Source: Gloeocapsopsis crepidinum LEGE 06123
Lineage (GTDB): Bacteria; Cyanobacteriota; Cyanobacteriia; Cyanobacteriales; Chroococcidiopsidaceae
Assembly (NCBI RefSeq): GCF_015207655.1
Contig: NZ_JADEWN010000015.1
Span: 1 to 64,000 of the forward strand
Direction: 5' to 3'
DNA length: 64,000 bases
Under the pieces are notes generated by a model that saw only the letters and a list, made by a program, of their open reading frames with translations, was not told where the DNA came from and made no database searches. The stretch's first letter is position 1. Every line of letters begins with the position of its first letter. The position numbers and the translations under genes are program-made. Below are positions 1,707 through 23,437 of this stretch, piece by piece.

Positions 1707-2756
1707 ATGAGTATTGTTCCATTTCCACCACCAGTAAAACCCAAATTTAAATTTATAGATCTATTCTGCGGTATTGGAGGTTTTAGATTAGTATTACAAT
1801 CTCTTGGTGGAAAATGTGTATTTTCGTCTGATAGTGATGCAGCAGCGAGAGCAACATACCAGACAAACTTCGGAGAGTTACCTTATGGAGATATTAGAAA
1901 GCTTACTAACTCAAATATATTAGATGAGGAAATAGATCGCCTCATTCCAAACCATGATTTATTAACTGCTGGTTTTCCATGCCAACCTTTTAGTAGGGCT
2001 GGAGTGTCGGCTAGAAACTATCTAGGTCAAAATCATGGATTTAAAGATATTGAACAAGGAAATTTGTTTTTTGACATCGTTAGAATTGCTAGAGTAAAAA
2101 AAACTAAATTCTTATTACTAGAAAACGTAAAAAACTTTCTTACTCACGATCAAGAAAAAACTTTTCATATTGTTAGGGAAACAATTGAGAAGGATTTAGG
2201 TTACTCTTTTAATTACAAAATTGTAAATTCCAGCTCACTGGTTCCTCAAAGAAGAGAGCGTTTTTATATAGTTTGTTTTCGAGATAAGGTACACTTTGAG
2301 TTCCCTAATTTTCAAGGAGAACCATTACCTTTAAGGTTAATTTTAGAAGAAAACGTGTGCAATAAATTTACAATTTCAGATAAACTTTGGGAAGGACATC
2401 AGAAAAGATCGCAAAGGAATGAAGCTAGAGGTGCTGGATTTACGGTGAAATTAGCAAACTTAGACAAACCATCTGGCACTCTGGTTTCAAGATATTACAA
2501 AGATGGGAAAGAATGCCTAATTCCTCAACAGGGTAAAAACCCTAGAATGCTGACGCCAAGGGAATGTGCCAGATTACAAGGTTTTCCTGAAGAATATCTC
2601 CTACCGAATAGTGCTGCTGCGGCTTATAGGCAGTTTGGCAACTCTGTTGCTGTACCTGTGGTTATTAGAATTGCTCAAGCAATTTTGGAAAAACTGGATA
2701 CTATAGACATATCAAACAGAAGAATTACAAAAAGCAGGATTCAAAACAGCAGCTAA
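1707..2756 (+). CDS. DNA (cytosine-5-)-methyltransferase, type II RM
   Basis: Transfers a methyl group from S-adenosylmethionine to C5 of cytosine in a specific site, protecting host DNA from the partner endonuclease. At 349 aa it is of normal length for a Dcm-type enzyme. Motifs in order: I (FIDLFCGIGGFR, about residues 17-28), IV with the catalytic Cys in GFPCQPFSRAG, VI (LLLENVKNF), VIII (QRRERFYIV), a short variable/target-recognition region, IX (RMLTPRECARLQGFP) and X (QFGNSVAVPVV). All catalytic motifs look intact. The 3' end overlaps the start of the broken restriction gene in another frame, the usual tight M-R arrangement. The target site cannot be read from sequence, though the partner's EcoRII-like signature makes a CCWGG/CCNGG-type site a possibility. 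The surroundings are AT-rich, consistent with transfer. Confidence 0.93.
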   Translation: MSIVPFPPPVKPKFKFIDLFCGIGGFRLVLQSLGGKCVFSSDSDAAARATYQTNFGELPYGDIRKLTNSNILDEEIDRLIPNHDLLTAGFPCQPFSRAGVSARNYLGQNHGFKDIEQGNLFFDIVRIARVKKTKFLLLENVKNFLTHDQEKTFHIVRETIEKDLGYSFNYKIVNSSSLVPQRRERFYIVCFRDKVHFEFPNFQGEPLPLRLILEENVCNKFTISDKLWEGHQKRSQRNEARGAGFTVKLANLDKPSGTLVSRYYKDGKECLIPQQGKNPRMLTPRECARLQGFPEEYLLPNSAAAAYRQFGNSVAVPVVIRIAQAILEKLDTIDISNRRITKSRIQNSS

Positions 2757-3821
2757 TCTAACAGTTTGGGAAAATGTTACTGGTACTTACGGTATTTAAT
2801 TAGAAGTGGAGCTAAACAGTTAGGAAAAGATACTAAACGTATCGAATCTATTTATAATGATTTAACTACTACATATAAACTCATTACTCTTTGAGGAGAA
2901 TCAGAAACAAATCAACTAAAAATTCTTCGTTCTGTTTTTGAGCAGTCATTATTCTTTCAACTGAAAGATAGTACTAGCGTTAAATTAGAGTACGAGAAAC
3001 TCTTAGTAGACCTGGAACGGCTTTTAATAACTCCTAAAGACTATTTAATTTTTGCAATATCAATCAAAGAAGTGATGTTGCCTACTAATGAAGCTGTAGG
3101 AAAAGTTCCAACTGATGAAACTTATGCTTTTGTTAAAAGGTATGCCACAGCTATACTTGATACTAAAAAAGAGCAAGGTTTAGTAAATTTAATTCGCGAT
3201 TGGGATGACTTCACAGGAATGCTCGCTATCAATAAAGAAAGAGATTTGATAGTTGAATTGTATAGAAATGTTAAAGAGAATTTAGCAACAAGCTTAAGTA
3301 ATTTTGAGGAAAATATATCTAAAAGCGATGAAGATGTTGTTTTAACAGCATTATGTCAAGAATACGAAAGGAGAGTCGCTCAAAAAAGAAAAACTAGGGC
3401 TGGTAAAGACTTAGAAAGTAGTATTGAATTTATTTTCAATTATTTTGATATTCAAACAGGAGGTAAACCTAAGCATTTTACTGCTGGTTTGGAAATAGAC
3501 AACTGGGTTGAAACTAAAAATGGGTGGTATATAGGAGTAACTTTGAAAAGAACTTTAAGAGAAAGATGGAAGCAGACATACACAACTGATGATAAAATCT
3601 ACGTTCAACACAAAATTAGTAAAATAATATGGGTAATTAGCGATGATTCTGATTTAAGTGAACAAAAGATATCTCAACTTGTGTCATACAGGCATATCTT
3701 TTTTATTCCAGATAATTCTCGTGTCTTGAGAAACTTGTGTTCTCACCCAAATATAGGGAAATATCTTTTTCCGATTACAGAATTAGTTACTCAGGTACAA
3801 CAATTAATAGAAACCTGTTAG
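2707..3821 (+). pseudogene. EcoRII-like type II restriction endonuclease, frameshifted; catalytic domain ORF intact
   Basis: Coding-like sequence starts inside the methyltransferase 3' end (TEELQKAGFKTAANL from about 2716) and runs to a TAA at 2797-2799. From about 2793 it continues in another frame (YLIRSGAKQLGKD), meets an in-frame TGA at 2892-2894, and then stays open to 3821. One lost base near 2791-2795 plus one nonsense change would account for this. The part from GTG 3072 (or ATG 3075) to 3821 is a 249-aa ORF. It holds the nuclease core: RAGKDLESSIEFIF (about residues 109-122), EIDNW and GVTLKRTLRERWKQ (about 155-168), resembling the K-T-x(2)-(D/E)-R-W-(R/K)-Q signature of EcoRII C-terminal domains (PD-(D/E)XK). 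In EcoRII the isolated catalytic domain is active, so the short ORF might still be functional. Family assignment is by motif memory. Confidence 0.7.
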
Positions 3822-8368: not shown

Positions 8369-10684
8369 TCATGGCTGAAATGAATCGAAGCGTTGGTGTT
8401 GAGAAGACCAGCGCTTGAGCTGATAAGTTTTGTTAGTAGCAACTAGTAATGCTGGAGGCTGATCGTCCTCTAGATCGGCAATTCCGATTGCGCGATGCTC
8501 AGCAGCACTGCCAAACTCGCTGTAAAGGATACGTCCATTGTGTGAAAAAATAATTGTGTGCGATCGCGAATCATTTTGTTGAAGTACATTGATCTCGAAA
8601 TTATGAACGGCAGCAATCTCCTGTGGAGAGATAATCATTATTACTTCTGCTGTACCATCACCATCTAAGTCAATTAACTGTACTGGCAATTCTCCCAGTT
8701 GCTTTAGCATCTTCTCTACATTTGGAGCAGGCGTTTTTTGAGAATTTGGGTTGCGTTTTTGCAATTCCTGCCATAACTGAGGTAATATTTGGACAATTTC
8801 AATAGGCTGCGATTGTTGTGTCAATTCAGAAAAGGCGATTGTTTGGGGTTGTAGCCACTGTAATGTTGCTTTAGTAAGTGCTAGTTGTCGTGAAGCTGAT
8901 ACTATGGGAAACGCATCAGATACGGCTAACAGTTTCAGCGTGCTACCTTGTAACTGTACTGCTTTGACAACAGCAAGCTCGATTTGCTGATATCCACCTG
9001 GTAGCCAAGAAACAATTTGAACTTCAGCATCTGAATTTAAACCTAATTGCTGCCAGTATTGGGCTGCGGTTTGTTGAGGTGTAAGCTTGAACGGCGCTTG
9101 TTGCCAGGTATTGCCATCGTGATAGGCGCTAAGTTGGATTTGATACCATGTTTGCTGATCGGCGATCTGTAAGGGTGTTTGCTCAATTTGCAGCCATTGC
9201 TGAGGATTAATTTGCGTAACTTGTTGTGCAGTACCAACAAAGCGGCTGGAATGAGAAGTTGCAACTTTATTTGATGAGAAATCACCTTCTAAACGTTTGA
9301 GGAGTTTTTGGATATAAGCAATATCAGCAGATGTTGTCTGTGGTTGCTGTTTTAGCCAGGCGATCGCATTTCTTCTACTTTCTTGTGCGCCTTTAAGTAG
9401 CGCCCCCCAAGCTTTGACTTCAGTTCGCTTCGGGTTAACACGTAAGGCAACTTCTACACGATTACCTAATCGTCCATTATCTGTTTCTAATAAAGTCGTA
9501 ATTTCTTGTGTATTTGTCGGTGAAGCTTGAAAAACTTTTAGGGCTTCTCCCCAACGCCCATCGATTAAAACAGCGAGAACTTGTTGACTAGGACTTGCCC
9601 AAGTTTGATTTGCTCGCTTTTGGCTTTTTTCGGCGTGTAATCGAATAAAATCGAGTTGTGCTTGTGCCGCACTTGACCATGCTTGACGCTTTTGACGTTG
9701 TTGTTTGATAAACTGCAACCATTTTTCGGCGGGTGTCCACAATCCACTACGGGCAATAAGTAACGCATTTTGATAATTGCGATCATCTAATGCTGGTTCT
9801 GCGATGGAAACAGGTTCTAATTGCAGTGGATCAAAGATAAAATTTGCTGGTTTGACTTGATAAACTTGCAATCGCGGTTCTAAATCAATGGTTTGATCGA
9901 TAACTAACTCTGGAGAACCTCCGGCGATCGCTTGTTGCCATTGCGGTTGAGTGGGACTTGTCCAAGGCAACATTAAACTAAGATAGGAGCGATCGGGGTT
10001 ATAGTGGACAATTTGACCGTAGGCGATCGCTTGTCCTCGTTGTCGTTCTCCCCAAAGATAAAACCAAATTCCTTGGGTTGGTGTGGTACTCTCAAACCGA
10101 CGCAGTTCGGTTACTGGTAGGGGACGATTTGAACTTGTGTCTGCTGTCTCTGGATTGATGAGGGGTGCGACAACAAATGATTCTTCAGGTCCTGTGACAT
10201 CAGCTTGAGTTATAAACTGATAGTGGATTTCACCTTTCGGTCGATTAAGAAGATTTCTAGCATCTGCGATGCGATACACTCGCAATTCGACGATCTGATT
10301 TTGCGATCGCACAGGTAAGATGACAGACGTTGGTTGCGAATTAGCAGGATTAACTTCTAAAGGTAACGGTTTCCCAGCAATTTTTCCTTGTGTGCTTAAC
10401 TCCGCTGCAATTTGTGTCAGAGTTTGGGCTGGTTCTTGATTTAACGGTAGCTGCGCCCACTGCGGTAAGAAGTCATTTAAGGATGCGATCGCACTTGGAT
10501 TAAAAAACAAACTATAACTCAACCATATGCCGCTGACGACTACGCCGCTTGCGCCTAGCAACAACGTAATTCCTAGTAAAAATGCCATTTGCTCTTTTCT
10601 TTTTCCATAGCTTGAGTTGTGCTGCGGAAAAGATGTATCAGCAAGCGTGTATTTTCTGGTTAGTTTATGCTTGTGTTTTGACAT
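8369..10684 (-). CDS. Large conserved cyanobacterial protein with N-terminal TM and DxDxDG motif
   Basis: A 771-aa protein of unknown function. The N-terminus is basic (KHKHKLTRK), followed by a single transmembrane helix near residues 34-56 (FLLGITLLLGASGVVVSGIWL), so most of the chain should be on the far side of the membrane. The middle is rich in Gln and Trp without a family I recognise. Near residue 690 the motif IDLDGDGTAEVIMI fits an FG-GAP/integrin-like calcium-binding loop, and a second weaker unit (IGIADLEDDQPPALLVAT) follows, suggesting a short beta-propeller-like end. The arrangement resembles large conserved proteins seen in other cyanobacteria. It is monocistronic; the ATG at 10684 precedes the basic stretch. 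Confidence 0.75.
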   Translation of the reverse strand: MSKHKHKLTRKYTLADTSFPQHNSSYGKRKEQMAFLLGITLLLGASGVVVSGIWLSYSLFFNPSAIASLNDFLPQWAQLPLNQEPAQTLTQIAAELSTQGKIAGKPLPLEVNPANSQPTSVILPVRSQNQIVELRVYRIADARNLLNRPKGEIHYQFITQADVTGPEESFVVAPLINPETADTSSNRPLPVTELRRFESTTPTQGIWFYLWGERQRGQAIAYGQIVHYNPDRSYLSLMLPWTSPTQPQWQQAIAGGSPELVIDQTIDLEPRLQVYQVKPANFIFDPLQLEPVSIAEPALDDRNYQNALLIARSGLWTPAEKWLQFIKQQRQKRQAWSSAAQAQLDFIRLHAEKSQKRANQTWASPSQQVLAVLIDGRWGEALKVFQASPTNTQEITTLLETDNGRLGNRVEVALRVNPKRTEVKAWGALLKGAQESRRNAIAWLKQQPQTTSADIAYIQKLLKRLEGDFSSNKVATSHSSRFVGTAQQVTQINPQQWLQIEQTPLQIADQQTWYQIQLSAYHDGNTWQQAPFKLTPQQTAAQYWQQLGLNSDAEVQIVSWLPGGYQQIELAVVKAVQLQGSTLKLLAVSDAFPIVSASRQLALTKATLQWLQPQTIAFSELTQQSQPIEIVQILPQLWQELQKRNPNSQKTPAPNVEKMLKQLGELPVQLIDLDGDGTAEVIMIISPQEIAAVHNFEINVLQQNDSRSHTIIFSHNGRILYSEFGSAAEHRAIGIADLEDDQPPALLVATNKTYQLKRWSSQHQRFDSFQP

Positions 10685-11216: not shown

Positions 11217-12050
11217 ATGCTTATGGAGACAATTGAACTTAAGTTCCTTTTGAGATTATTGGGCTTTACAGATTACCGGATATCACTAACTGAAATCAAC
11301 CTGGGTAATAATACTAAAGCAGCAGAAAGAAATAAAATTTGCCGTCAACTATGCGATCGCGGTTTAGTTGAATGTTCCTACGAAGTCACAAAACTTAAGA
11401 TTGCACCTCCAGGAAAAGCCTTACTCAAACTGGATCAGCCGCAAGTACCAGTTACTCAAAATGAACTCAAAGCCCTGAAGGCTAGTGAAAACAAAAAGAT
11501 TTTGCCAGGAGAAACAAAAGTTCCTATTGCAGATCGGCAAGCAGTAATTCAAGGATTGGCTGAACGCGGTTTAATTGAGGTAGAGACTAAAGTTAAAGAA
11601 GTTTGGCTATCTGAACAAGGTAAAGCATATCTACGGGACGAATATATTCCTAACAAAGGAGTTCGACCTGTTATTAGTCTAGAGCTTTTAGGTAACTATA
11701 TACGTTTTATACGTAAAAGTTTTAACACGGAAAGGAATACTTATACTGAATCAAATGGAGTATCAGCAACGCTAGCAAAAGAACTTAGCGACTTAGAAGT
11801 TTTTCAAACGATTCAAAGCCTAGATCAAGAATTAGGGACAGAAAACTATTTACCAATTTTTCATTTACGCCAGAAACTTGCTTCCGTAATCTCACGTAAG
11901 CAATTAGATGAAATACTGTATCGCTTACAACGTAATGACCAAATTGAATTGAGTTCCTTGCAAGAGGTTACTGCTTATACTCCAGAACAAATTGATGCAG
12001 GAATTCCTCAGGATATTGGTGGACCTTTGTTTTTTATTGTTGTGAATTAA
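11217..12050 (+). CDS. Tandem winged-helix protein, first gene of exonuclease/FtsK operon
   Basis: A 277-aa protein not assignable to a named family. It contains an internal duplication: residues 36-70 and 105-139 align without gaps with the shared pattern AxR-(6)-L-x2-RGL-x-E...V...GKAxL, each looking like the recognition helix plus wing of a winged-helix domain. A third winged-helix-like unit is near residues 208-277 (RQKLASVISRKQLDEILYRL) ending in GGPLFFIVVN. No catalytic motif is visible. It starts a same-strand operon (48 bp to the ATPase gene), so a DNA-binding or adaptor role for the downstream motor is inferred. Two starts are in frame (ATG 11217, then ATG 11223); the second lies 6 bp on and cannot be excluded. 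Confidence 0.75.
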   Translation: MLMETIELKFLLRLLGFTDYRISLTEINLGNNTKAAERNKICRQLCDRGLVECSYEVTKLKIAPPGKALLKLDQPQVPVTQNELKALKASENKKILPGETKVPIADRQAVIQGLAERGLIEVETKVKEVWLSEQGKAYLRDEYIPNKGVRPVISLELLGNYIRFIRKSFNTERNTYTESNGVSATLAKELSDLEVFQTIQSLDQELGTENYLPIFHLRQKLASVISRKQLDEILYRLQRNDQIELSSLQEVTAYTPEQIDAGIPQDIGGPLFFIVVN

Positions 12051-12098
12051 AGTTTTCTTGAATTATCTGTAGTACTCAGTTTTTATCAAGGTAGCAGG

Positions 12099-14072
12099 AT
12101 GGCATCTATAGATCAAATTATCCAACGCGAAGTTAACCCTTTTGATACGACAACCTTCAAACCAGGTAACTTTTGGCAAGAACAGCAAGATCCAGCATTG
12201 AATGTTGATTCGATTCACCAAGAAGCAATTACTACAATTGAGTATACCTTAGCTCAGATAGCAAAAGATCATCGGACGCGCACTATAATGCTTGCTGGTG
12301 ATTCTGGTTCAGGTAAAAGCCATCTTTTAGGTAGGCTGAAGCAAACACTGAACTCTAAAGCTTTTTTTGTTTACATTGGTCCTTGGGCTGACAGTAATTT
12401 TATTTGGCGACACACTTTACGCCAAACAGTTGACAGTTTACTCAAAGTACCAGAAGGACAACAAGAATCACAGTTGTTGTTATGGCTAAAGAGTTTATCG
12501 ATCTTTAAACAACGTAATCTTATAGATAAATTACTAGGCGATCGCAAAGCATTTATCCACAAGTTAAAAGTAACTTGCCCATCTGATATGTACAACGCTA
12601 ATGAGTTTTTTAGCGTGTTGTATGACTTACTTAATCCCGAACTACACCTACTTGCTTGTGATTGGTTACGCGGCGACGATCTTGATGCAGATAGTCTTGA
12701 AGCGCTAGGAGTCAAAAATACGGTTGTTACCGAAGATGCCGCCCAGAATATTTTAGCTAATTTTGGCAAAATTTCTGCCCAAACTCAACCAATTGTTTTA
12801 TGTTTTGACCAACTCGATAATATTCCACGTACAGATGGATTTATTGACTTACAAGCATTATTTAGCGTTAACTCTAGTATTCACAATCAATTATTAAAAA
12901 ACTTTCTAATTATTATTAGCATTATTACGAATACATGGAGAGAAAATAAAAACCGCGTTCAATCAGCCGATAGAGTAAGAGTTGATGATTTAGTTGTCCT
13001 CAAACCCATTAAACTTGACGAAGCGGAAGCAATTTGGAAATCTCGACTTGTTCCTTTACATCAACAAGCTGATGAATTGCCAATTTCTTCAATCTATCCA
13101 CTAAAGCGACAGGTTTTAGACGAAAAATTTCCTGGTGGTAAAACTTTTCCTCGAAATACACTAATTCTAGGACGGCAATTATTTCAACTGTATAAATTAA
13201 AAGTCATTGATCCACCTATTGTCAATCCTCATTTAGCTGCTTTTCAACTAATCTGGAATAAAGAACTTAAAAAAGTTGAACAAAAAATTACGCGAATTCG
13301 TCAGTTATCCTCGCCAGAACTAATTCAAATGTTACGTGAAGCCTTGGAAGCTTTGGAATTAAAAACTCAACCAAAATTTTTACCTAGTCCTACTTATACC
13401 AGCTATTCCCTAAGTTGTTTTCTACCATCACAGCAACAAAAAAGTGGAATTGTCTGGATGGAAGATCCCAATATGAGTAGCTTCTTTTATGTGATGAAAG
13501 GTTGTCACAAAGCTTTGGAAAAAAAACACTGTCAAACTTTGTTTCTGATTCGAGCAGAAAAACTAGGTAACAAAACGAATCAAGGCTATCAAATCTACAA
13601 GCAAATTTTTAAAGGTTCACCTCACTGTCACATTGTACCAGATCTTACTTCGATTCACTACCTAGCTACTTACCACAGCATGGTTAATGCAGTTAGTTCT
13701 CAAGAGTTAGTTATTATAGACAAAATTCCTGACTTAAAAGAATTACAAGCTTTTGTGCGTGATGCTCAAGTATTGCAAAATTGTAGTTTATTGCAAGTTT
13801 TAGGAGTTCTTGCTGAAGAAGCAGAACCCAAGCCAGATCGAGATCCAGATCTACACCAAGTAAAAGAGTTTCTCATAAACTTAGTGACAACACAGCAACT
13901 TTTAGGGCGAAGTACATTAATACAAAATGCACTTGAAAGCTTTCCTCAAGCCAATGAGTCACAAGTTAAAGAACTCATTCAGCAGTTATGCCAAGAAAAT
14001 AAAGTGCAAATTCTTGACCCTAAGGCAAAACCTGAAGCACAACTCGTTTGTTTAGTGCCTAATTCAAAATGA
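12099..14072 (+). CDS. P-loop ATPase with C-terminal winged helix
   Basis: A 657-aa AAA/STAND-like ATPase. Walker A is GDSGSGKS (residues 67-74) and Walker B is PIVLCFDQLDNI (about 231-242). Between them lies DWLRGDDLDADSLEALGV (about 188-205), reminiscent of the W-x-G-x2-(L)...LG(V/I) insert of BREX-type (BrxD/DUF2791-like) ATPases; this resemblance is by eye only. A middle domain (about 430-570) has no family I recognise. The C-terminal 70 residues (about 585-655) look like a winged helix, echoing the first gene. The stop codon overlaps the next start (ATGA at 14069-14072), so translation is probably coupled. Likely a loader, clamp or switch for the fused nuclease-motor encoded downstream. 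Confidence 0.8.
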   Translation: MASIDQIIQREVNPFDTTTFKPGNFWQEQQDPALNVDSIHQEAITTIEYTLAQIAKDHRTRTIMLAGDSGSGKSHLLGRLKQTLNSKAFFVYIGPWADSNFIWRHTLRQTVDSLLKVPEGQQESQLLLWLKSLSIFKQRNLIDKLLGDRKAFIHKLKVTCPSDMYNANEFFSVLYDLLNPELHLLACDWLRGDDLDADSLEALGVKNTVVTEDAAQNILANFGKISAQTQPIVLCFDQLDNIPRTDGFIDLQALFSVNSSIHNQLLKNFLIIISIITNTWRENKNRVQSADRVRVDDLVVLKPIKLDEAEAIWKSRLVPLHQQADELPISSIYPLKRQVLDEKFPGGKTFPRNTLILGRQLFQLYKLKVIDPPIVNPHLAAFQLIWNKELKKVEQKITRIRQLSSPELIQMLREALEALELKTQPKFLPSPTYTSYSLSCFLPSQQQKSGIVWMEDPNMSSFFYVMKGCHKALEKKHCQTLFLIRAEKLGNKTNQGYQIYKQIFKGSPHCHIVPDLTSIHYLATYHSMVNAVSSQELVIIDKIPDLKELQAFVRDAQVLQNCSLLQVLGVLAEEAEPKPDRDPDLHQVKEFLINLVTTQQLLGRSTLIQNALESFPQANESQVKELIQQLCQENKVQILDPKAKPEAQLVCLVPNSK

Positions 14073-16657
14073 ATCAATCTCTTAGTAGTAACTTAAATGA
14101 GGCACTATATCTTACTGAAGACAATGATATTCGAGTATTTATTCATCAAATTGCCTCTAGTAACATTCTTTGGCTAGACACAGAAGTTGCTGATTACAAA
14201 ACTACTTGCCCTAGATTATCTCTAATTCAGGTATTAAGCAATCATAAGGATCTTACAGGTAACTCTACAGTAATTTTAGACGTATTGGATAAGCCTAATT
14301 TAGTAACATATTTCGTTCATAAAATTATGGCAAATCCCAAAATCGAAAAAGTTTTTCACAATGCTAATTATGATTTAAGATTTTTAGGAAAAAAAGACGC
14401 AAAAAACGTAACTTGTACTTGGGCGATCGCCAAAAAGTTAGCTAAAACTTCTCTATCTGTCACAAATTTAAAATTAAAAACCTTAGCCTCAGAACTTTGT
14501 CACTTTGCCAACATAGATAAAACGGAACAAGGAAGTGATTGGGGACGGCGACCATTGACGCTAAAGCAGTTACAGTATGCCAAGATGGACACAGTGTATC
14601 TAGCTCACGTGCATCGACGTTTAATTGAGATTGCAAAAAGTAACTCTAAGCCAATAGATAATATGCTAGGAGCTAAAACTAAACCTTCTTTAAGTGTTAC
14701 TAATGTCAGAGTAGCCTTTGAGTGTCCGCGATTATTTTATCTAGGCTATCACTTTGGAGGAATGACGCTTTTCTTACCTGCGGATACTGCAATTGGAATT
14801 GGAACAGCATTCCATGAGTTATCAAATCAATTTGTCCGTGTCGCAAAACAAGACTCGCAGTTTTCAGCTTTATTTGAACTAGAGGTTGAACAGTTAGATA
14901 TAGAAGCGATCGCCTCTGCATTGCAAAAACTATTCTATGAAAAAGTTTTTTTTCCTTATTTGCAAGTATCTATTCAGAAAGAACCTGGAAAAGCACCCGC
15001 ATTACATCAACTGTGGGTAGGACTTACGCAACTTATTCACCGTTGGGTGCAGTTATTGATTGGTAATCGTCACTACTGTACACCACAAGAAGTTATTTCT
15101 AAAACATTTCTAGCGCAAGAACTGAAGATTCAACATTACTTTACGCTTCCTAATGGAACGCAGCAGTTAATTAAAGGTAGATGTGACAGCATTATCTACG
15201 ATTTTGCTGAGCAACGTTTGTGTGTAGTTGAGTATAAATCTTATCAAGCTGTCGATCAATCAGCACAGTTAGCGCAAGTTGCGCTTTACAGTTATATGCT
15301 GCGCAAAACGATTGGCGTTGAGATTAATTCCGCAGTTTATAGCGTACTACCCGATTTGCATGAACTCACTTTTACATGGGAACAACTGGAAAAAACAGTA
15401 CATCAACTTGTTCCCCAAAAAATGCAACAAATGCAGCAATGGTTAACTTGGGAACCACCGCAACCCGATCCACCACCGCCTACAAGTCAGCCTGATTTAT
15501 GTTACGTCTGTCCGCAGCACAAGAAATGTCAATCTTTTTTTAATGACAGTGAAGCGATCGCCATTGACAGCTTATCAGTAGTGTCATCTCCATCTATTCA
15601 AGATAAACAGACAGACTTGATTCCAAACGCCGATCGCACTGGAAAAGAGTTAGTCGATACATTAGAATCTTTTGGTATTGGTGTTGACTACCAAGGTGCT
15701 GCTATTGGACCTGCATTTGTACGTGTGAAACTCAAACCTCATGCAGGAGTCAAAGTTAGTTCCATTTTACGCTTATCTAACGACTTACAAGTGCAGTTAG
15801 GACTCGCAAATCCTCCTTTAATTGCACCGCGAGCAGGATATATTAGTATTGATTTACCGCGTCAAGATCGCCAAATCGCTAGTTTTGAAAAATATGTGCG
15901 ATCGCAAGTGTTACCTGCTGATGCTCAGATAAAAATCGCTATTGGAGTAAATTTAGAAGGACAACTTGTAGAAGCTGATTTGTCTGATCCGAATACTTGT
16001 CACTTTTTAGTTGGTGGTACAACTGGTAGTGGTAAAAGTGAGTTTTTGCGATCGCTGCTTCTCAGTCTTATTACCCGTCATTCCCCAGATCGTCTCAAAA
16101 TTGCGCTTGTCGATCCTAAACGAGTTACGTTTCCAGAATTTGAACAGATGCGATCGCTTTATTCACCTGTAGTTAAGGATACCGAACAGGCAATTGAATT
16201 AATGGATCGACTTGTGGCAGAAATGGAACAGCGCTATCAACTGTTTGAATCAGCAGGATGTGCCGATTTGAATAGCTACAATCAGAAAACGCATTCCTCA
16301 ACTCCTCGTATCGTCTGTATTTTTGACGAGTATGCTGATTTTATGGCAGAAAAAGAAAGCCGCAATGCACTCGAACAAAGTATTAAGCGATTAGGTGCAA
16401 TGGCACGCGCTGCCGGAATTCATCTTATCATTGCTACGCAACGTCCAGAAGCTAAGGTAGTCACTCCCATCATCCGTTCCAATTTACCAGGAAGAATCGC
16501 CCTACGGACTGCGAGTGAGGCTGATTCTGCGATTATCTTAGGGGGAAAACAAACTTTAGCAGCTTATTTACTCGGTAAAGGCGATTTACTCTACCAAGGT
16601 GGCGCACAACTACATCGATTACAAAGCTTATTTACGAAAACGATTCAGCTACCGTAA
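14069..16657 (+). CDS. DEDDy exonuclease - Cas4-like Fe-S nuclease - FtsK motor fusion
   Basis: An 862-aa three-domain protein. (1) Residues about 20-190: RNase D-like 3'-5' exonuclease with ExoI LDTEV (D37, E39), ExoII HNANYDLRF (D102) and ExoIII SDWGRRPLT...QLQYAKMD (Y170, D174). (2) About 208-490: PD-(D/E)XK nuclease of the RecB/Cas4/AddB type, with GTAFHE (H249), GRCDS (D372) and EYK (E388, K390), plus Cys219 and C-x2-C-x5-C (C478, C481, C487), which would form a [4Fe-4S] staple. (3) About 525-862: FtsK alpha-beta motor with ESFGIGVD, Walker A GGTTGSGKS (649-657) and Walker B CIFDEYAD (D753, E754), but no FtsK membrane region and no gamma domain. All catalytic residues look intact. Predicted role: ATP-driven DNA translocation coupled to end resection. 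It is last in the operon and overlaps the ATPase gene by 4 bp. Confidence 0.88.
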   Translation: MNQSLSSNLNEALYLTEDNDIRVFIHQIASSNILWLDTEVADYKTTCPRLSLIQVLSNHKDLTGNSTVILDVLDKPNLVTYFVHKIMANPKIEKVFHNANYDLRFLGKKDAKNVTCTWAIAKKLAKTSLSVTNLKLKTLASELCHFANIDKTEQGSDWGRRPLTLKQLQYAKMDTVYLAHVHRRLIEIAKSNSKPIDNMLGAKTKPSLSVTNVRVAFECPRLFYLGYHFGGMTLFLPADTAIGIGTAFHELSNQFVRVAKQDSQFSALFELEVEQLDIEAIASALQKLFYEKVFFPYLQVSIQKEPGKAPALHQLWVGLTQLIHRWVQLLIGNRHYCTPQEVISKTFLAQELKIQHYFTLPNGTQQLIKGRCDSIIYDFAEQRLCVVEYKSYQAVDQSAQLAQVALYSYMLRKTIGVEINSAVYSVLPDLHELTFTWEQLEKTVHQLVPQKMQQMQQWLTWEPPQPDPPPPTSQPDLCYVCPQHKKCQSFFNDSEAIAIDSLSVVSSPSIQDKQTDLIPNADRTGKELVDTLESFGIGVDYQGAAIGPAFVRVKLKPHAGVKVSSILRLSNDLQVQLGLANPPLIAPRAGYISIDLPRQDRQIASFEKYVRSQVLPADAQIKIAIGVNLEGQLVEADLSDPNTCHFLVGGTTGSGKSEFLRSLLLSLITRHSPDRLKIALVDPKRVTFPEFEQMRSLYSPVVKDTEQAIELMDRLVAEMEQRYQLFESAGCADLNSYNQKTHSSTPRIVCIFDEYADFMAEKESRNALEQSIKRLGAMARAAGIHLIIATQRPEAKVVTPIIRSNLPGRIALRTASEADSAIILGGKQTLAAYLLGKGDLLYQGGAQLHRLQSLFTKTIQLP

Positions 16658-16992: not shown

Positions 16993-18012
16993 ATGAATTT
17001 AACTCTATCTGAAATTTCAAAGCTTATGAAACAAGAGTCACCTGTGTTTATTGTAGGTGGTTCTCGAAGTGGTAGCAGTATTCTTTACCGAGTACTTCAA
17101 AGACACTCTAGCTTTAAGCCATATAACAGTAAGGAAAAAACTGGAGTAGATCTCACAGAATCTAAGGTTTTCTATAATTCTTGTATTGCTTGTTATGCTG
17201 ATAACAAAAAGCCACTAAAGTATTTGCTACGCAATACAGATTACTATCGCAAGTTTCTTAAACAAATCAGATGGATAAAGCTATTTCAATATTGTTTTTT
17301 TACTGAGGTGCTAACTAGTAGAATTGCGACTAATTTTAATTTATTAAGACCTTTAATATATAAGCTAACTTTTAACGTAATTTTGCTTCAGACATTCTTT
17401 TACTATGCCAAGCAAGCACGAGGCATGAAAAGAATAATTGAAAAAAGTCCTTTGCACGTATATAGAATTCCAGAAATAAAAGCAACATTTCCCAAAACTA
17501 AGTTTATTCATATATATCGTCATCCCCTTGATGTATATAGTTCTTATAAGCAGAGACTCAAGGTTTCTTTGGAAAATGGTATTGAAAAATCAAAACTTAC
17601 CTGGTTAATGCTTTCTCCTAAAGATTTTTGCGAGCTTTACACGCAACGTATCCAATTGGTATTGAGAGAGTATCACTCCAATTCCTGCCAATTTATGTTA
17701 ATTCGGTATGAAGACTTTATTAGCAAGCCAGAATTAATAATTCGTCAAGTTTGTGATTTTTTAGATGAATCATACGAAGAGGAGTGTATTCCTGAAAATA
17801 GAAATGAATATCCTGAGTTTGCTGAAGAGAAGATGTATCCCAACCTATTTGGTACGATAAAGAAACCTACCAAAAAATGGCAAGACTATATCAGTGAAGC
17901 TGACGCAATTTTTATTGAAGATAGCTTATCTGGAGTTATGAACCAGCTTAATTATCCTAGATATACAAGAATTACACAAAAGTTATCGTCAGCTATGCTA
18001 GTAGCAGACTAA
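16993..18012 (+). CDS. Sulfotransferase family protein
   Basis: A 339-aa PAPS-dependent sulfotransferase-fold protein. The 5'-phosphosulfate loop is PVFIVGGSRSGSSILYRVLQ (about residues 17-36). The 3'-phosphate-binding segment is FIHIYRHPLDVYSSYKQR (about 172-189), with IRYEDFISKPELI (about 237-249) as the conserved RYED motif. No transmembrane region is evident, although residues about 92-135 are hydrophobic. The acceptor is unknown; lipids, glycans or peptides are all possible. It is a single gene with AT-rich composition and no operon partner. A second, more distant sulfotransferase lies at about 49.3 kb. Confidence 0.87.
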   Translation: MNLTLSEISKLMKQESPVFIVGGSRSGSSILYRVLQRHSSFKPYNSKEKTGVDLTESKVFYNSCIACYADNKKPLKYLLRNTDYYRKFLKQIRWIKLFQYCFFTEVLTSRIATNFNLLRPLIYKLTFNVILLQTFFYYAKQARGMKRIIEKSPLHVYRIPEIKATFPKTKFIHIYRHPLDVYSSYKQRLKVSLENGIEKSKLTWLMLSPKDFCELYTQRIQLVLREYHSNSCQFMLIRYEDFISKPELIIRQVCDFLDESYEEECIPENRNEYPEFAEEKMYPNLFGTIKKPTKKWQDYISEADAIFIEDSLSGVMNQLNYPRYTRITQKLSSAMLVAD

Positions 18013-18426: not shown

Positions 18427-19044
18427 CTACCAGTTAGCAACTAACTCTTCAATCATTGTACGGGCTTCGTCTAAAGATTCTTGACGCGCGTCGTCACCGC
18501 TGCTGAGGTTATCAGCTTGCACAAATGTGATATCAGTAATACCAACTAAGCCAAAAACAGCTTGTAAGAAAGGCTTGAGGTAATCATACTGTTCTGCTGG
18601 ACCCGATCTATAGCTACCACCGCTAGCAGCTACAACTAGCATCTTCTTTCCATGAACTAAACCTTCGTAGCCTTGCTCAGTAGTGGCAAAAGTGCGATTA
18701 ACACGAACAATTTGGTCAATATAAGCTTTGAAGGTCGAAGGTACGCTAAAGTTGTACATTGGAATACCGAACACGTAGCGATCGGCGGCGAGAAATTCAT
18801 CTACTAAGTCATCCGAAAGCTTAATTGCTGCATCTAGTTCGGGATTACGCGCTTCTGGTGGTGTAAACGCAGCAGCAATCCATCCTTCATCGACGTGAGG
18901 TACAGGGTGTTTGCCCAAATCGCGGTAAGTCAGTGTATCCTCTGGATGGGCATTTTTCCAAGCTGTGATGAACTCATAAGAAAGTTTACGTGAAAAAGAA
19001 CGTTCACCACGAGGACTAGAATCGATATGCAGAATATGCGCCAT
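18427..19044 (-). CDS. azoR: FMN-dependent NADH-azoreductase
   Basis: A flavodoxin-fold oxidoreductase that uses NADH and FMN to reduce quinones and azo compounds two electrons at a time in the cytoplasm. At about 205 aa it has the usual length. The FMN phosphate loop is HIDSSPRGERSFSRKLS near the N-terminus, FGIPMYNFSVPSTFKAYIDQ binds the isoalloxazine ring, and VVAASGGSYRSG gives the third FMN loop. The ATG at 19044 (protein MAHILHID) is preferred because the family starts there; an upstream in-frame start at 19065 adds only MFRNHCF. It is monocistronic and divergent from the ParA gene. Confidence 0.92.
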   Translation of the reverse strand: MAHILHIDSSPRGERSFSRKLSYEFITAWKNAHPEDTLTYRDLGKHPVPHVDEGWIAAAFTPPEARNPELDAAIKLSDDLVDEFLAADRYVFGIPMYNFSVPSTFKAYIDQIVRVNRTFATTEQGYEGLVHGKKMLVVAASGGSYRSGPAEQYDYLKPFLQAVFGLVGITDITFVQADNLSSGDDARQESLDEARTMIEELVANW

Positions 19045-19185
19045 AAAACAATGGTTCCTAAACATAACTTAACAGTATCACTCGAGTAAATTTAGCATTA
19101 ATCTACTTTTGTGTCTGTCTACCTCAAGACAGCTAAATCACAACACAGTGCAATCAAGCATTAACTGAATTCCAGGATTTTACTA

Positions 19186-20115
19186 ATGGCTTATATCATT
19201 GCAACAGCAAATATGAAAGGTGGTGTGGGCAAAACAACGTTAAGTGTCAACTTAGCAACTGCGCTAGCCAAAGATCATGGTAAAAAAGTTCTTGTTTTCG
19301 ATTTAGATACTCAAATTAGCGCTACCTTGAGTATGATGTCCCCGACAGATTTTGCTAAGTATCGCAAAACAAAACGAACTTTAAAATATTTAATCAATCA
19401 AGCTATTCAGCCAGAGACACGCTCAAAAATAAGTGTTAAAGAAGCAATTCATCACAATGTATGTAAGCTTCCTAATTTAGATTTGTTACCTGGAGACATT
19501 GAGCTATATGATGAATTTGTCGTTTCTGAAATGCTCCATGAGGAAGCTTTTGAGGTAGATCGATTAGATTTTGAAACTGTTTGGAATCGGTTTGAACGAC
19601 GATTAGTGAAACAGATTTTAGATCCGGTTATTGAAAACTACGATTTTATTATTCTCGATTGCGCCCCTGGTTACAATTTGATGACTCGAAGCGCACTTGC
19701 TGCTAGTAACTTTTACATCCTACCTGCAAAATCTGAGCCGTTATCGATAGTAGGTATTCAGCTATTAGAAAGACGGATTGCCCAACTCAAAGAAAGCCAT
19801 GCATCTGAAGTTAATTTAAACATCAAATTGTTAGGTATTGTATTTACAATGTCGGGTAATTTAATTACGGGGCGATATTACAAACAGGTGATGCAGAGAA
19901 TTAACGAAGATTTTGATGCAGCACAGATTTTCAGGACACAAATACCAACTGATGTTAATGTTGCTAAAGCAGTTGATAGTTTTATGCCTGTTGTATTGAC
20001 AAATCCGCAGTCTGCTGGTGCTAAAGCGTTTACTCAAATTACGCAAGAGTTTTTACAAAAACTGCAAGCAACTGGTAGCAGCCAACAGCAAACGCAATTA
20101 GTCAATATTAGTTAG
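19186..20115 (+). CDS. ParA/MinD-family ATPase (orphan)
   Basis: A 309-aa cytoplasmic ATPase of the ParA/Soj type, which positions DNA or other cargo by dimerising on DNA in an ATP-dependent way. The deviant Walker A with signature lysine is MKGGVGKTT (about residues 10-18), the A' region is VFDLDTQ (about 38-44), and Walker B is FIILDCAPG (about 160-168). A ParB gene does not follow: the next gene is the convergent ileS, 37 bp away. An extra acidic segment (DIELYDEFVVSEMLHEEAFE, about residues 103-122) lies between A' and Walker B. A plasmid-type origin is possible but not shown; cargo positioning, as for carboxysomes, is another option. Confidence 0.88.
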   Translation: MAYIIATANMKGGVGKTTLSVNLATALAKDHGKKVLVFDLDTQISATLSMMSPTDFAKYRKTKRTLKYLINQAIQPETRSKISVKEAIHHNVCKLPNLDLLPGDIELYDEFVVSEMLHEEAFEVDRLDFETVWNRFERRLVKQILDPVIENYDFIILDCAPGYNLMTRSALAASNFYILPAKSEPLSIVGIQLLERRIAQLKESHASEVNLNIKLLGIVFTMSGNLITGRYYKQVMQRINEDFDAAQIFRTQIPTDVNVAKAVDSFMPVVLTNPQSAGAKAFTQITQEFLQKLQATGSSQQQTQLVNIS

Positions 20116-20129
20116 TTTGAGTGTAACAA

Positions 20130-20146
20130 GGTGGGCAATGCCCACC
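20130..20146. terminator. Palindrome between convergent parA-like and ileS genes
   Basis: GGTGGGCA and TGCCCACC arms flank a single A, giving a perfect 8-bp stem with almost no loop. No long T-run follows. It may be a bidirectional attenuator or a copy of the common cyanobacterial GTGGGCATTGCCCAC repeat. Confidence 0.45.
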
Positions 20147-20152
20147 CCACCG

Positions 20153-23100
20153 TTAAAAGTCTCCGATTAATGCAGAAACGCATCGTTCGCAGATCAGCGG
20201 ATGTTCTGACGATTCGCCAACATGAACTGAGTAGTTCCAGCAGCGATCGCACTTTTTCCCATCTGCATTAACAACACCAACGCCAAGTTCATCAGTTTGT
20301 AAGTTGTACTTCGCCTGTTGGACAGCTTCTGATGAATTGACGAGTTCTACCTGTGAAGCAATGAATAAATAACGTAATTCATCAACTCCATTAGATTGAG
20401 GTAACTGCTTTTCTGGTTGTACTGGTGCATCTGTGATAAATTCAGTTTCGGTAACTTGCGGTTTTGGTTTCTGCGATAACATCAGACGCATAAATGCGAA
20501 TAACAAGTAGCGCAGCGTTGCATAAATCCCAATAAGTTGAAATACGCGCGGTAGTAGCGGAATTTCATTGATTCCGACAAGCAGGGCTTTTAATAAACCA
20601 ATTGGTAAAACAACTAAAGGAAACACCGCAAGAACAACTGCAAATATCCAAAGTTCGCGGTATACCTTTAATACATCACGTAAGTAGCTAGGCGATCGCG
20701 TAAATGGTTGCAAGATCCCTGCTAAATACTGTTGCCAGGTTTTTGGGGTTTCTGTTGCAGAGATTTTAGCTGTTTCTACCAACGCAGGCGCAACTATAGT
20801 AGGTTGGGTTGGTGTCGTGCTAGGGTGTAATGTTTGTAATTGTGCTTTGAGTACAGTATCAGGCACATAAAGCAACACCTTAGCTTCTAAAGAAGAACCA
20901 ATCATTTTCTCGACTCGTGCTTGTTCGAGAACCTTATTAACTTCTCCACGAATTTGGCGTAGCTTTTGCCAAGAATTGCCAAGTTCGCTATTTTGCCATT
21001 GTTCTTCTAATTTCACCCAACCAGCTTCAAAAACTGATTTGTACGGTGTGGGATAAGGCAGTTGTTGCCAAATATCTTCTGCCATGTGACATAGTACAGG
21101 TGCGATCGCTCGTGCTAAATTTTCGAGTGCGACACTTAACACAGTTTGACAACTGCGTCGTCGGAAGGCATTAGGCGCACTGATGTACAATCGGTCTTTG
21201 GCAATATCTAAGTAGAAATTAGATAAATCCACCACACAGAAATTCTGCACTGTTTGGAAAAACCGGAAGAATTGATAACTCGTCATAGCCTCAGTGACGT
21301 CTTTGAAGACTTCCGTCATTCGGTGCAGCATGTACCGATCGAGTTCGGGCAATTGTTCGTAAGGTACAGCATGTTGAAGGGGGTCAAAATCGTGTAAGTT
21401 ACCTAATAAGAACCGTGCTGTATTACGAATCTTGCGATAAGCATCGGATAATTGCTTGAGAATATTTTTACTCAGCGGGGCATCTGAGGTGTAATCAACT
21501 GATGATACCCACAGCCGTAAGACATCAGCACCATATGCTGGTTCCTCTTTTTGATTTTTACCGCCATTGATGACAATCTCTGGTTCGATGCCATTACCCA
21601 GCGATTTACTCATTTTGCGACCTTGCTCATCAATTGTAAAACCATGAGTCAAGACTGTTTTGTAAGGTGCATAGCCATTGACTGCTACACTCGTGAGTAA
21701 ACTCGACTGAAACCAGCCTCGATGTTGGTCGGAGCCTTCCAAATACATATCAGCGGGATAACGCAATTCCGGACGCTGTTGGGCTACTGCTGCCCATGAG
21801 GAACCCGAATCGAACCAAACATCCATCGTATCTGTACCTTTGCGGTAAGACCGACCATTGTGAAGGTAACTTTCTGGCAATAACTCCTCAGTTGATAATT
21901 CCCACCAAGCATCTGTACCTTTTTCAGCGATAATTCCTTGAACGTGGGCGATCGTTTCTTCATTGAGTAGTGCAACGCCTGTTTCTTCGTCGTAGAACAC
22001 AGGGATAGGTACACCCCAGCTACGTTGTCGAGAAATACACCAATCTGAGCGTTCGGACACCATTGCGGTAATCCGATTTTCACCAATTGCGGGAATCCAC
22101 TTCACCCCAGAAATTGCTTTGAGTGCTTCATCGCGAAATCCTGCTACTGAGGCAAACCATTGTTCTGTTGCACGGAAAATTGTTGGTTTTTTCGTCCGCC
22201 AATCGTAGGGATATTTATGAACATAAGGTTCTTCTTTGAGTAGTGCCCCCACCGCATATAGGGCATCAATCACAGCAGAGTTACCATTACTAAGAACATT
22301 CAACCCTGCAAATTGTCCCGCTTCTTCTGTAAAGTTACCATCGGCATCGACTGGTGCCAAAATTGGTAGACCGTAACGCTGACCGACAATATAGTCATCT
22401 TGTCCGTGACCAGGTGCGGTGTGGACTAACCCTGTCCCTGACTCAGTTGTGACATAATCACCACCAATGACAATAGGACTTTCGCGATCGTAGAGTGGAT
22501 GGCGGTAGGTTGTATGTTCTAAATCCTTACCACTGACTTTAGCTTTAATTGTGAGATCGCTTGCGAGAATCTGTGACAAGCGGTCTACTAAATCAGCAGC
22601 TACGATTAAATATTTGGGATGCTCATCGGCGGAAACTTCTACAACTGCGTATGTCAGTTCTGGATTGACAGCCACTGCTAAGTTAGCCGGAATCGTCCAG
22701 GGTGTGGTGGTCCAAATTGCTACACTCAGATGCGGTAAAAATTCTCCTAGTGCAGAGACAGCCTCAGAAAGATGAGTGACAGGAAAGGCAGCATAAAGAC
22801 TGCGCGAAGTATGTCCTTCAGGATATTCTAATTCAGCTTCTGCCAAAGCTGTTTTTGAGCTAGGACTCCAATGGACAGGCTTAAGACCGCGATAGATGTA
22901 TCCTTTTAAGACCATTTGCCCGAATACGCCAATTTGTGCTGCTTCGTATTCAGGCTTTAAAGTTAAATAAGGATTATCAAAGTCACCCCAAACGCCGTAG
23001 CGTTGGAAACTTTTGCTTTGTTCCTCGACAGCAGCTAAGGCAAAGTCTTTTGCTTTGCGACGCAACTCTAAAGGCGTGAGGTTTTGCCGTTCAGCCGCCT

Positions 23101-23437
23101 TCATATTTTGTAACACTTTGAGTTCAATCGGCAAACCGTGACAATCCCAGCCAGGAACATAACGCACTTTACGTCCTTGCAACAACTGAAATCGGTTAAT
23201 AATGTCTTTGAGAATTTTGTTAAGCGCATGACCGAGATGCAGTGCGCCGTTAGCGTAAGGAGGGCCGTCGTGCAAAACAAATATCTCGCCTGGGTTGTTC
23301 TGCGACAGGCGATCGTAAATTCGGTTTTCCGCCCAAAATTGTTGAATCTCTGGCTCGCGCTTTGTAGCGTTTGCCCGCATATCAAAGTTGGTTTTAGGCA
23401 GATTAACGGTATCTTTGTAGCTTCCTGGTTCTGTCAC
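20153..23437 (-). CDS. ileS: Isoleucyl-tRNA synthetase with CAAD membrane domain
   Basis: Charges tRNA-Ile with isoleucine. The class I motifs are [16 protein letters not shown] (HIGH, about residues 59-74) and [14 protein letters not shown] (KMSKS, about 604-617), with a CP1 editing domain between them. The C-terminal zinc finger CDRCW...CERC is near 1062-1088. At 1094 aa it is about 130 longer than usual IleRS. The extra part, about residues 900-1015, has two hydrophobic helices ([21 protein letters not shown] and [18 protein letters not shown]) and matches the CAAD domain that anchors some cyanobacterial aminoacyl-tRNA synthetases to thylakoids. It is inserted just before the zinc finger. 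The start is a GTG at 23437. The ycf66 gene lies upstream on the same strand, 117 bp away. Confidence 0.95.

What the first reader, a model, noticed from the sequence alone, without database searches (positions are those of the whole stretch)
11217..16657. Three-gene operon: tandem winged-helix protein, P-loop ATPase, and exonuclease-nuclease-FtsK fusion
All three genes are on one strand; spacings are 48 bp and a 4-bp ATGA overlap. Combined motifs predict ATP-driven DNA translocation with two nuclease activities and two winged-helix DNA-binding modules. Fe-S PD-(D/E)XK nuclease plus motor recalls AddAB/RecBCD and HerA-NurA, but an FtsK motor fused to both an RNase D-like exonuclease and a Cas4-like nuclease is a layout I cannot match to a named anti-phage or repair system. 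The location near a broken restriction-modification locus supports an accessory role. This is my top candidate for an undescribed system.
Basis: partly seen in the sequence, partly recalled or inferred. Interest (0 to 1): 0.88.

Follow-up and report, generated by a model that had tools for sequence, protein, structure and literature searches.

The report
ORC–FtsK–nuclease operon in cyanobacteria
A real, conserved three-gene bacterial operon combines a DNA-loading ATPase, a DNA-pumping motor and two DNA-cutting domains; its kind was predicted as an anti-invader system in 2024, but in cyanobacteria it trades places at one chromosomal spot with an unrelated ParA/ParB gene pair that also carries a nuclease-like domain, which appears to be new.

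Summary
Three intact, co-directional genes (277, 657, 862 aa; 48-bp gap, 4-bp ATGA overlap) encode a multi-winged-helix protein (g1), an ORC/CDC6-type AAA+ ATPase with a buried catalytically empty REase-like domain and C-terminal winged helix (g2), and a DEDDy exonuclease–Fe-S PD-(D/E)XK nuclease–FtsK fusion (g3). All are under purifying selection.

The operon is a cyanobacterial variant of it: unnamed and, as far as I could find, untested.

What I did not find described: the operon occupies a conserved housekeeping locus, where in many relatives a nuclease-like-domain–ParA plus ParB-like pair sits instead. In 163 genomes of one family both intact systems co-occur in 3 (31 expected), with at least 12 switches on a flank-gene tree. 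Intermediates keep g1/g2/nuclease parts beside ParA/ParB with FtsK gone. g3 is the only FtsK-family protein in six operon genomes checked. I favour DNA interception and degradation with an exchangeable motor; chromosome maintenance is the main rival.

The parts
11217..12050 (+). g1: 277-aa protein of three winged-helix-like units (about 5-62, 81-131, 192-248), predicted DNA binder
   Evidence: AlphaFold pLDDT 84; no confident Foldseek match to a whole chain, weak hits are mostly wHTH proteins; homologous to upstream genes of distant bacterial operons, hhalign E 3e-7
12099..14072 (+). g2: 657-aa ORC/CDC6-type AAA+ ATPase
   Evidence: AAA_16 8e-9; AlphaFold pLDDT 89; Foldseek top hits ORC/Cdc6 chains; VIA-align Z about 15 to ORC/CDC6, 13-14 to TnsC and BrxC
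12297..12320 (+). g2 Walker A GDSGSGKS (residues 67-74)
   Evidence: G67, G70, G72, K73 invariant in 44 homologues incl. distant ones
13311..13697 (+). g2 residues 405-533: alpha-beta-beta-beta-alpha-beta-alpha-beta-alpha REase-like domain without an E-x-K motif, between AAA+ core and C-terminal wHTH
   Evidence: secondary structure of the model; assignment by topology, not by a separate fold search
13845..14054 (+). g2 C-terminal winged helix (residues 583-652), the fastest-evolving part of the operon
14069..16657 (+). g3: 862-aa exonuclease-nuclease-FtsK fusion
14117..14623 (+). g3 DEDDy 3'-5' exonuclease, RNase D-like (residues 17-185)
   Evidence: PF01612 1.2e-26; D37 E39 D102 Y170 D174 invariant
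14687..15532 (+). g3 PD-(D/E)XK nuclease, Cas4/AddB-like, with four-cysteine Fe-S type motif (residues 207-488)
   Evidence: PF12705 5e-13; Cas4 profile 8e-8; D373/E388/K390 and C219/C478/C481/C487
15608..15859 (+). g3 FtsK alpha domain (residues 514-597)
   Evidence: PF17854 7e-11
15917..16654 (+). g3 FtsK/SpoIIIE motor; the only FtsK-family domain over the Pfam cut-off found in this genome; no gamma domain or membrane segment seen
   Evidence: PF01580 4e-42; SspH FtsK half 2.5e-66; genome search
8369..10684 (-). flanking gene (771 aa) that marks one edge of the conserved locus
   Evidence: adjacent to operon or to the ParA/ParB pair in relatives
18427..23437 (.). other edge of the locus: flavodoxin-like, ParA/MinD-like (309 aa) and Ile/Val-type tRNA synthetase genes, syntenic in operon+ and operon- relatives; a sulfotransferase (16993-18012) lies between

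Best explanation
A DNA interception and degradation machine of the Orc/CDC6 'HerA/FtsK capture' class. Proposed steps: g1 and the g2 winged helix recognise a feature of target DNA (inferred); g2, an ORC-like AAA+ ATPase, loads the complex on DNA (by analogy with ORC/TnsC/BrxC; fold shown by model); the FtsK motor of g3 pumps the DNA (motifs shown); the Fe-S PD-(D/E)XK nuclease cuts and the DEDDy exonuclease chews 3' ends as DNA passes (motifs shown, activity inferred). The most likely target is incoming or extrachromosomal DNA. The motor appears exchangeable: at the same locus many relatives have a ParA with an N-terminal PD-(D/E)XK-like domain plus a ParB-like protein, alone or beside left-over g1/g2/nuclease parts, so the two look like alternatives for one job (inferred from genomics).
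For: ORC/CDC6 fold of g2 with embedded REase-like and C-terminal wHTH domains, the anatomy of the class. Intact catalytic motifs. Same g1-g2-(nuclease)FtsK order in Planctomycetes, Acidobacteria, Desulfobacterales and Synergistes at about 25% identity. g2 present in 37 of 38 genomes with g3; the exception is a g3 scrap. Accessory domains come and go: exonuclease missing (L054, L073, L086), nuclease a separate gene (L059, L065), kinase insertion (L065). Patchy distribution and frequent switching. In one family of 163 genomes intact g3 and intact ParA co-occur in 3 against 31 expected, Fisher p 4e-21. FtsK-less g1/g2/nuclease loci beside ParA/ParB: L060, L072, L084, L092, L094, L190, L191.
Against: No activity data anywhere. 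Neighbours are housekeeping genes, not a defence island. Inheritance within the window's genus looks vertical. No copies in phage or viral contig collections and one on a plasmid. Prevalence of one or other system in family f5 (139 of 163 with either intact) is high for a defence system.
Confidence: 0.58

Rival explanations
1. Chromosome maintenance: the locus holds a segregation or end-processing machine of polyploid cyanobacteria, which can be either the FtsK operon or the ParA/ParB pair; both families (FtsK, ParA/ParB) segregate DNA elsewhere.
For: Strong mutual exclusion and decay of one system beside the other; at least one intact system in 139 of 163 f5 genomes; g3 is the only FtsK-family protein over cut-off in six operon genomes, and ParA genomes G398, G394 and G229 have none over cut-off; strong ParB_N hits often lie on the small contigs of the better assembled genomes, so probably plasmids.
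Against: Not origin-linked: 3-44% of the chromosome from dnaN, no departure from uniform; no parS-like 16-mer within 3 mismatches in the window; absent from most of the phylum; switching as free as shuffled labels is odd for a housekeeping function; two nuclease domains.
Confidence: 0.22
2. Double-strand-break or stalled-fork repair, analogous to AddAB or HerA-NurA: motor plus Fe-S nuclease resects ends.
For: AddB/Cas4-like Fe-S nuclease fused to a DNA motor and a 3'-5' exonuclease.
Against: Patchy presence, free exchange with ParA/ParB, and co-inheritance with an ORC-like loader and multi-wHTH protein are not features of AddAB or HerA-NurA.
Confidence: 0.1
3. On the alternation only (compatible with the best explanation for the operon itself): the ParA/ParB pair is a second, independent defence or selfish cassette that merely shares an insertion hotspot; the exclusivity is positional, not functional.
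For: The ParA carries an HSDR_N-like domain with D...EAK kept in all 11 aligned copies; a second ParA type sits at the same place in L180 and L194-L196.
Against: Both can sit side by side (L184, L185, L186), so position alone does not exclude co-existence, yet intact pairs are ten times rarer than expected.
Confidence: 0.3

Closest known systems
Orc/CDC6-coupled 'HerA/FtsK capture' systems (Rakesh, Aravind & Krishnan 2024, PMC10853773)
   Same: Orc/CDC6 ATPase with inactive REase before a C-terminal wHTH; multi-wHTH partner; FtsK with FtsK-alpha; active REase; 3'-5' exonuclease fused to FtsK in some
   Different: Here exonuclease, Fe-S PD-(D/E)XK nuclease and FtsK are one polypeptide in cyanobacteria; the paper's main text names no cyanobacteria and the sections read mention no ParA/ParB exchange; its figures and supplement could not be read
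DndFGH/SspFGH restriction module (DndH, SspH)
   Same: HerA/FtsK motor with nuclease and P-loop partner; PADLOC SspH profile hits the g3 motor at 2.5e-66
   Different: No SWI2/SNF2-like, TRD or inactive methylase domains in g3 (Pfam); g2 matches DndF only over the P-loop
BREX BrxC / BREX-related capture (PMC12839542)
   Same: ORC-like AAA+ fold; BrxC 9zdx_A at Z 13.6
   Different: No PglZ, methylase, BrxB or BrxL genes beside the operon
HerA-NurA; AddAB/RecBCD
   Same: DNA motor plus nuclease; AddB/Cas4-type Fe-S nuclease signature
   Different: FtsK-alpha/SpoIIIE motor, no UvrD-type helicase, no NurA; additional ORC-like loader and wHTH protein

Membership tests
Orc/CDC6 HerA/FtsK capture systems | Orc/CDC6-family AAA+ ATPase | tested here: met
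   Foldseek and VIA-align top hits ORC/CDC6
Orc/CDC6 HerA/FtsK capture systems | inactive REase inserted between AAA+ core and C-terminal wHTH | tested here: met
   alpha-beta3-alpha-beta topology at 405-533 without E-x-K, wHTH at 583-652; assigned by topology only
Orc/CDC6 HerA/FtsK capture systems | HerA/FtsK domain (one set with FtsK-alpha) | tested here: met
   PF17854 and PF01580 in g3
Orc/CDC6 HerA/FtsK capture systems | active REase of one of two named families | tested here: inconclusive
   an active-looking PD-(D/E)XK nuclease is present, but it could not be matched to the paper's two families
[quoted passage not shown]
   three winged-helix-like units in g1
[quoted passage not shown]
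   PF01612 and PF01580 in one polypeptide, g3
Orc/CDC6 HerA/FtsK capture systems | counter-invader activity | not testable with these tools
   no experiment found; predicted only in the source paper too
DndFGH/SspFGH | DndH multidomain core (SWI2/SNF2-like, TRD, inactive methylase, REase, HerA/FtsK) | tested here: not met
   g3 Pfam architecture lacks all but a nuclease and the FtsK motor
HerA-NurA | NurA nuclease paired with HerA helicase | tested here: not met
   motor best fits FtsK_SpoIIIE with FtsK-alpha; no NurA hit
Housekeeping FtsK | N-terminal membrane domain and C-terminal gamma domain | tested here: not met
   exonuclease and nuclease at the N-terminus; no gamma domain hit
ParABS chromosome partition (for the alternating pair) | ParB with HTH, parS sites, origin proximity | tested here: not met
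   ParB-like protein has ParB_N but no HTH hit; the ParA loci measured lie 16-32% of the chromosome from dnaN; parS was looked for only in the window, which lacks the pair

The most novel reading that the evidence does not exclude
The FtsK motor of this system and a nuclease-like-domain-ParA/ParB-like pair are interchangeable motors for one DNA-handling function encoded at a single conserved cyanobacterial locus, swapped many times; that would make it a two-version DNA surveillance (or chromosome-guarding) machine in organisms that seem to lack housekeeping FtsK.
Probability: 0.35. Interest if true: 0.78.

Novelty: new variant of a known kind. Interest (0 to 1): 0.55.

Why it matters
The operon makes a predicted but, as far as found, untested class of anti-invader machine concrete, with full catalytic motifs and dozens of orthologues. 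The alternation with a nuclease-like-domain ParA/ParB pair gives a direct genetic test (complementation at one locus) of whether DNA motors from segregation systems are interchangeable parts of immunity, and asks what replaces FtsK in polyploid cyanobacteria.

Tried and rejected
parS-like sites: none in the window within 3 mismatches. Repeats around the operon: only weak AT-rich ones, no sign of a mobile element. Phage or viral carriage of g2: none found; one conjugative Pseudanabaena plasmid. Origin linkage: rejected. Intact FtsK fragments beside ParA as a designed FtsK+ParA hybrid: doubtful, since fragments start at different points, one N-terminus looks like a neighbouring gene (a nucleotidyltransferase-like motif, L189) and some lack Walker A. 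Orphan g2 beside ParA/ParB as a working partner: doubtful, Walker A is missing in L048 and the Walker B region is altered in L069. g1 against solved structures: no confident whole-protein match. MksE hit of g1 (E 0.018) treated as a shared winged helix only.

Full report
WHAT IS THERE. Three intact co-directional ORFs lie at 11217-12050 (g1, 277 aa), 12099-14072 (g2, 657 aa) and 14069-16657 (g3, 862 aa), with a 48-bp gap and a 4-bp ATGA overlap. The window is part of a 5.67-Mb cyanobacterial genome, and g1 with the start of g2 occurs there once. Pfam gives g3 a DEDDy exonuclease, a PD-(D/E)XK nuclease, an FtsK-alpha domain and an FtsK/SpoIIIE motor, and g2 an AAA+ domain; g1 has no confident hit. 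In an alignment of g3 homologues the exonuclease residues D37, E39, D102, Y170 and D174 are invariant; D373/E388/K390 and the four cysteines C219, C478, C481, C487 are conserved with few exceptions; the FtsK Walker residues are invariant. Compared with three close relatives, g1, g2 and g3 have dN/dS of about 0.12-0.19, so all are maintained.

STRUCTURE. An AlphaFold model of g2 from 44 homologues (mean pLDDT 89) shows an AAA+ core, then at 405-533 an alpha-beta-beta-beta-alpha-beta-alpha-beta-alpha unit, then a winged helix at 583-652. The top Foldseek hits are ORC/CDC6 chains; VIA-align gives Z about 15 to ORC/CDC6 and 13-14 to TnsC and BrxC. The middle unit has REase topology but no E-x-K; this is my reading of the secondary structure, not a separate fold match. 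g1 models as three winged-helix-like units (mean pLDDT 84), with no confident whole-chain match.

WHAT IS KNOWN. The PADLOC profile SspH matches the motor half of g3 (2.5e-66). [quoted passage not shown] they propose capture of invader DNA during segregation, transfer or packaging. The operon meets these features except that I could not assign its active nuclease to one of their two REase families. The word cyanobacteria does not occur in their main text; figures and supplement were not available. Literature searches found no experimental study.

DISTRIBUTION. Close g2 homologues occur in 46 of 386 sampled cyanobacterial genomes and g3 in 38, of which 37 also have g2. In G048, G099 and G231 g2 and g3 lie far apart yet both persist (coordinates). 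Distant relatives (about 25% identity) in Planctomycetes, Acidobacteria, Desulfobacterales and Synergistes keep g2 followed by a nuclease-FtsK gene, mostly with a g1-like gene upstream; the g1-like genes are homologous to g1 (hhalign E 3e-7) and their nuclease keeps D...E-x-K. The exonuclease fusion was seen only in cyanobacteria here. No viral contig or phage record has g2; one conjugative plasmid does.

THE LOCUS. In relatives the operon lies between the 771-aa gene (window 8369-10684) and a flavodoxin / ParA-MinD-like / Ile-Val-type tRNA synthetase block (window 18427-23437). Within the genus, operon identity is close to that of the flanking 771-aa gene. In G398, G394, G390, G395 and (broken) G400 the same place instead holds a ~462-aa protein and a ~240-aa protein. 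The first is a ParA with an HSDR_N-like N-terminal domain whose D...EAK motif is kept in all 11 aligned copies; the second has a ParB_N domain. The HSDR_N match is below Pfam's cut-off for G398's protein and above it for a related ParA.

ALTERNATION. In the window's family (19 genomes) 9 have g2 and 6 the ParA, none both (Fisher p 0.008). In a large related family (f5, whose loci interleave with named Nostoc, Anabaena and Calothrix loci), 163 genomes were searched for both. Counting g3 with its motor and full-length ParA: 75 operon only, 61 ParA only, 3 both, 24 neither; 31 'both' were expected, p 4e-21. The intact/not-intact lists were made by hand from the match coordinates; without any such sorting the figures are 19 both against 43 expected, p 9e-15. 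On a tree of the flanking ParA/MinD protein the two states change at least 12 times among 44 loci and are no more clustered than shuffled labels, so shared ancestry does not explain the exclusion. The 44 loci were not a random sample: several were fetched because they looked transitional.

INTERMEDIATES. Both intact side by side: L184, L185, L186; L037 has the operon beside a ParA split in two frames. FtsK lost but other parts kept beside ParA/ParB: L190 and L191 (g1, g2, exonuclease-nuclease), L060 (g1, g2, exonuclease), L084 and L094 (g1, g2, nuclease), L072 and L092 (g1 and two g2). In L190 the pair sits between the nuclease part of g3 and an FtsK scrap. ParA/ParB beside only an FtsK remnant: L187, L188, L189, L192, L199. 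Some remnants are degenerate. I read this as exchange of the motor module, or redundancy followed by decay; the two cannot be separated from sequence.

FUNCTION. PF01580 searches show g3 as the only FtsK-family domain over cut-off in G000, G386, G387, G389, G306 and G019, and none over cut-off in ParA genomes G398, G394 and G229. Against a partition role: the locus is not near dnaN (3-44% of the chromosome), there is no parS in the window, and switching is very free. Against simple defence: housekeeping neighbours and high combined prevalence. On balance DNA interception and degradation is most likely (0.58), chromosome maintenance second (0.22).

LIMITS. Nothing here measures activity. The REase-like domain and the motor-swap idea are inferences.

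Noticed in passing
L065:10508-13870 (G129): g3 variant with a protein-kinase domain between exonuclease and a nuclease copy that has lost its catalytic residues; a separate active-looking nuclease gene lies upstream of g1.
   Followed up: partly
L046, L052, L053, L056, L072, L092, L180, L181: Tandem g2 paralogues: one copy has Walker A GETGSGK and FDQL, the other mostly GDSGSGKS and (where read) FDNL, suggesting a hetero-oligomeric ATPase.
   Followed up: partly
L042, L043, L051: A distant g2 family (about 25% identity) is followed by a DUF1802 protein, in L043 with a sub-threshold Mrr-type endonuclease match; L043 and L051 have a g1-like gene upstream: a possible separate REase-type variant of the same class.
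   Followed up: partly
L130, L135 (Myxococcus, Corallococcus): g2-like AAA+ fused to a HerA/FtsK motor in one protein of about 1,130-1,170 aa.
   Followed up: no
window 1707-3821: C5-cytosine methylase followed by a 249-aa EcoRII-C-like frame with only a weak partial Pfam match; the restriction gene looks 5'-truncated or broken.
   Followed up: partly
L195, L196, L194, L180: A second ParA type (about 30-33% identical, in L196 with an HSDR_N domain and a Rho_N-domain partner instead of ParB_N) occupies the same place, in L195/L196 next to g3 cut off after its nuclease domain.
   Followed up: partly
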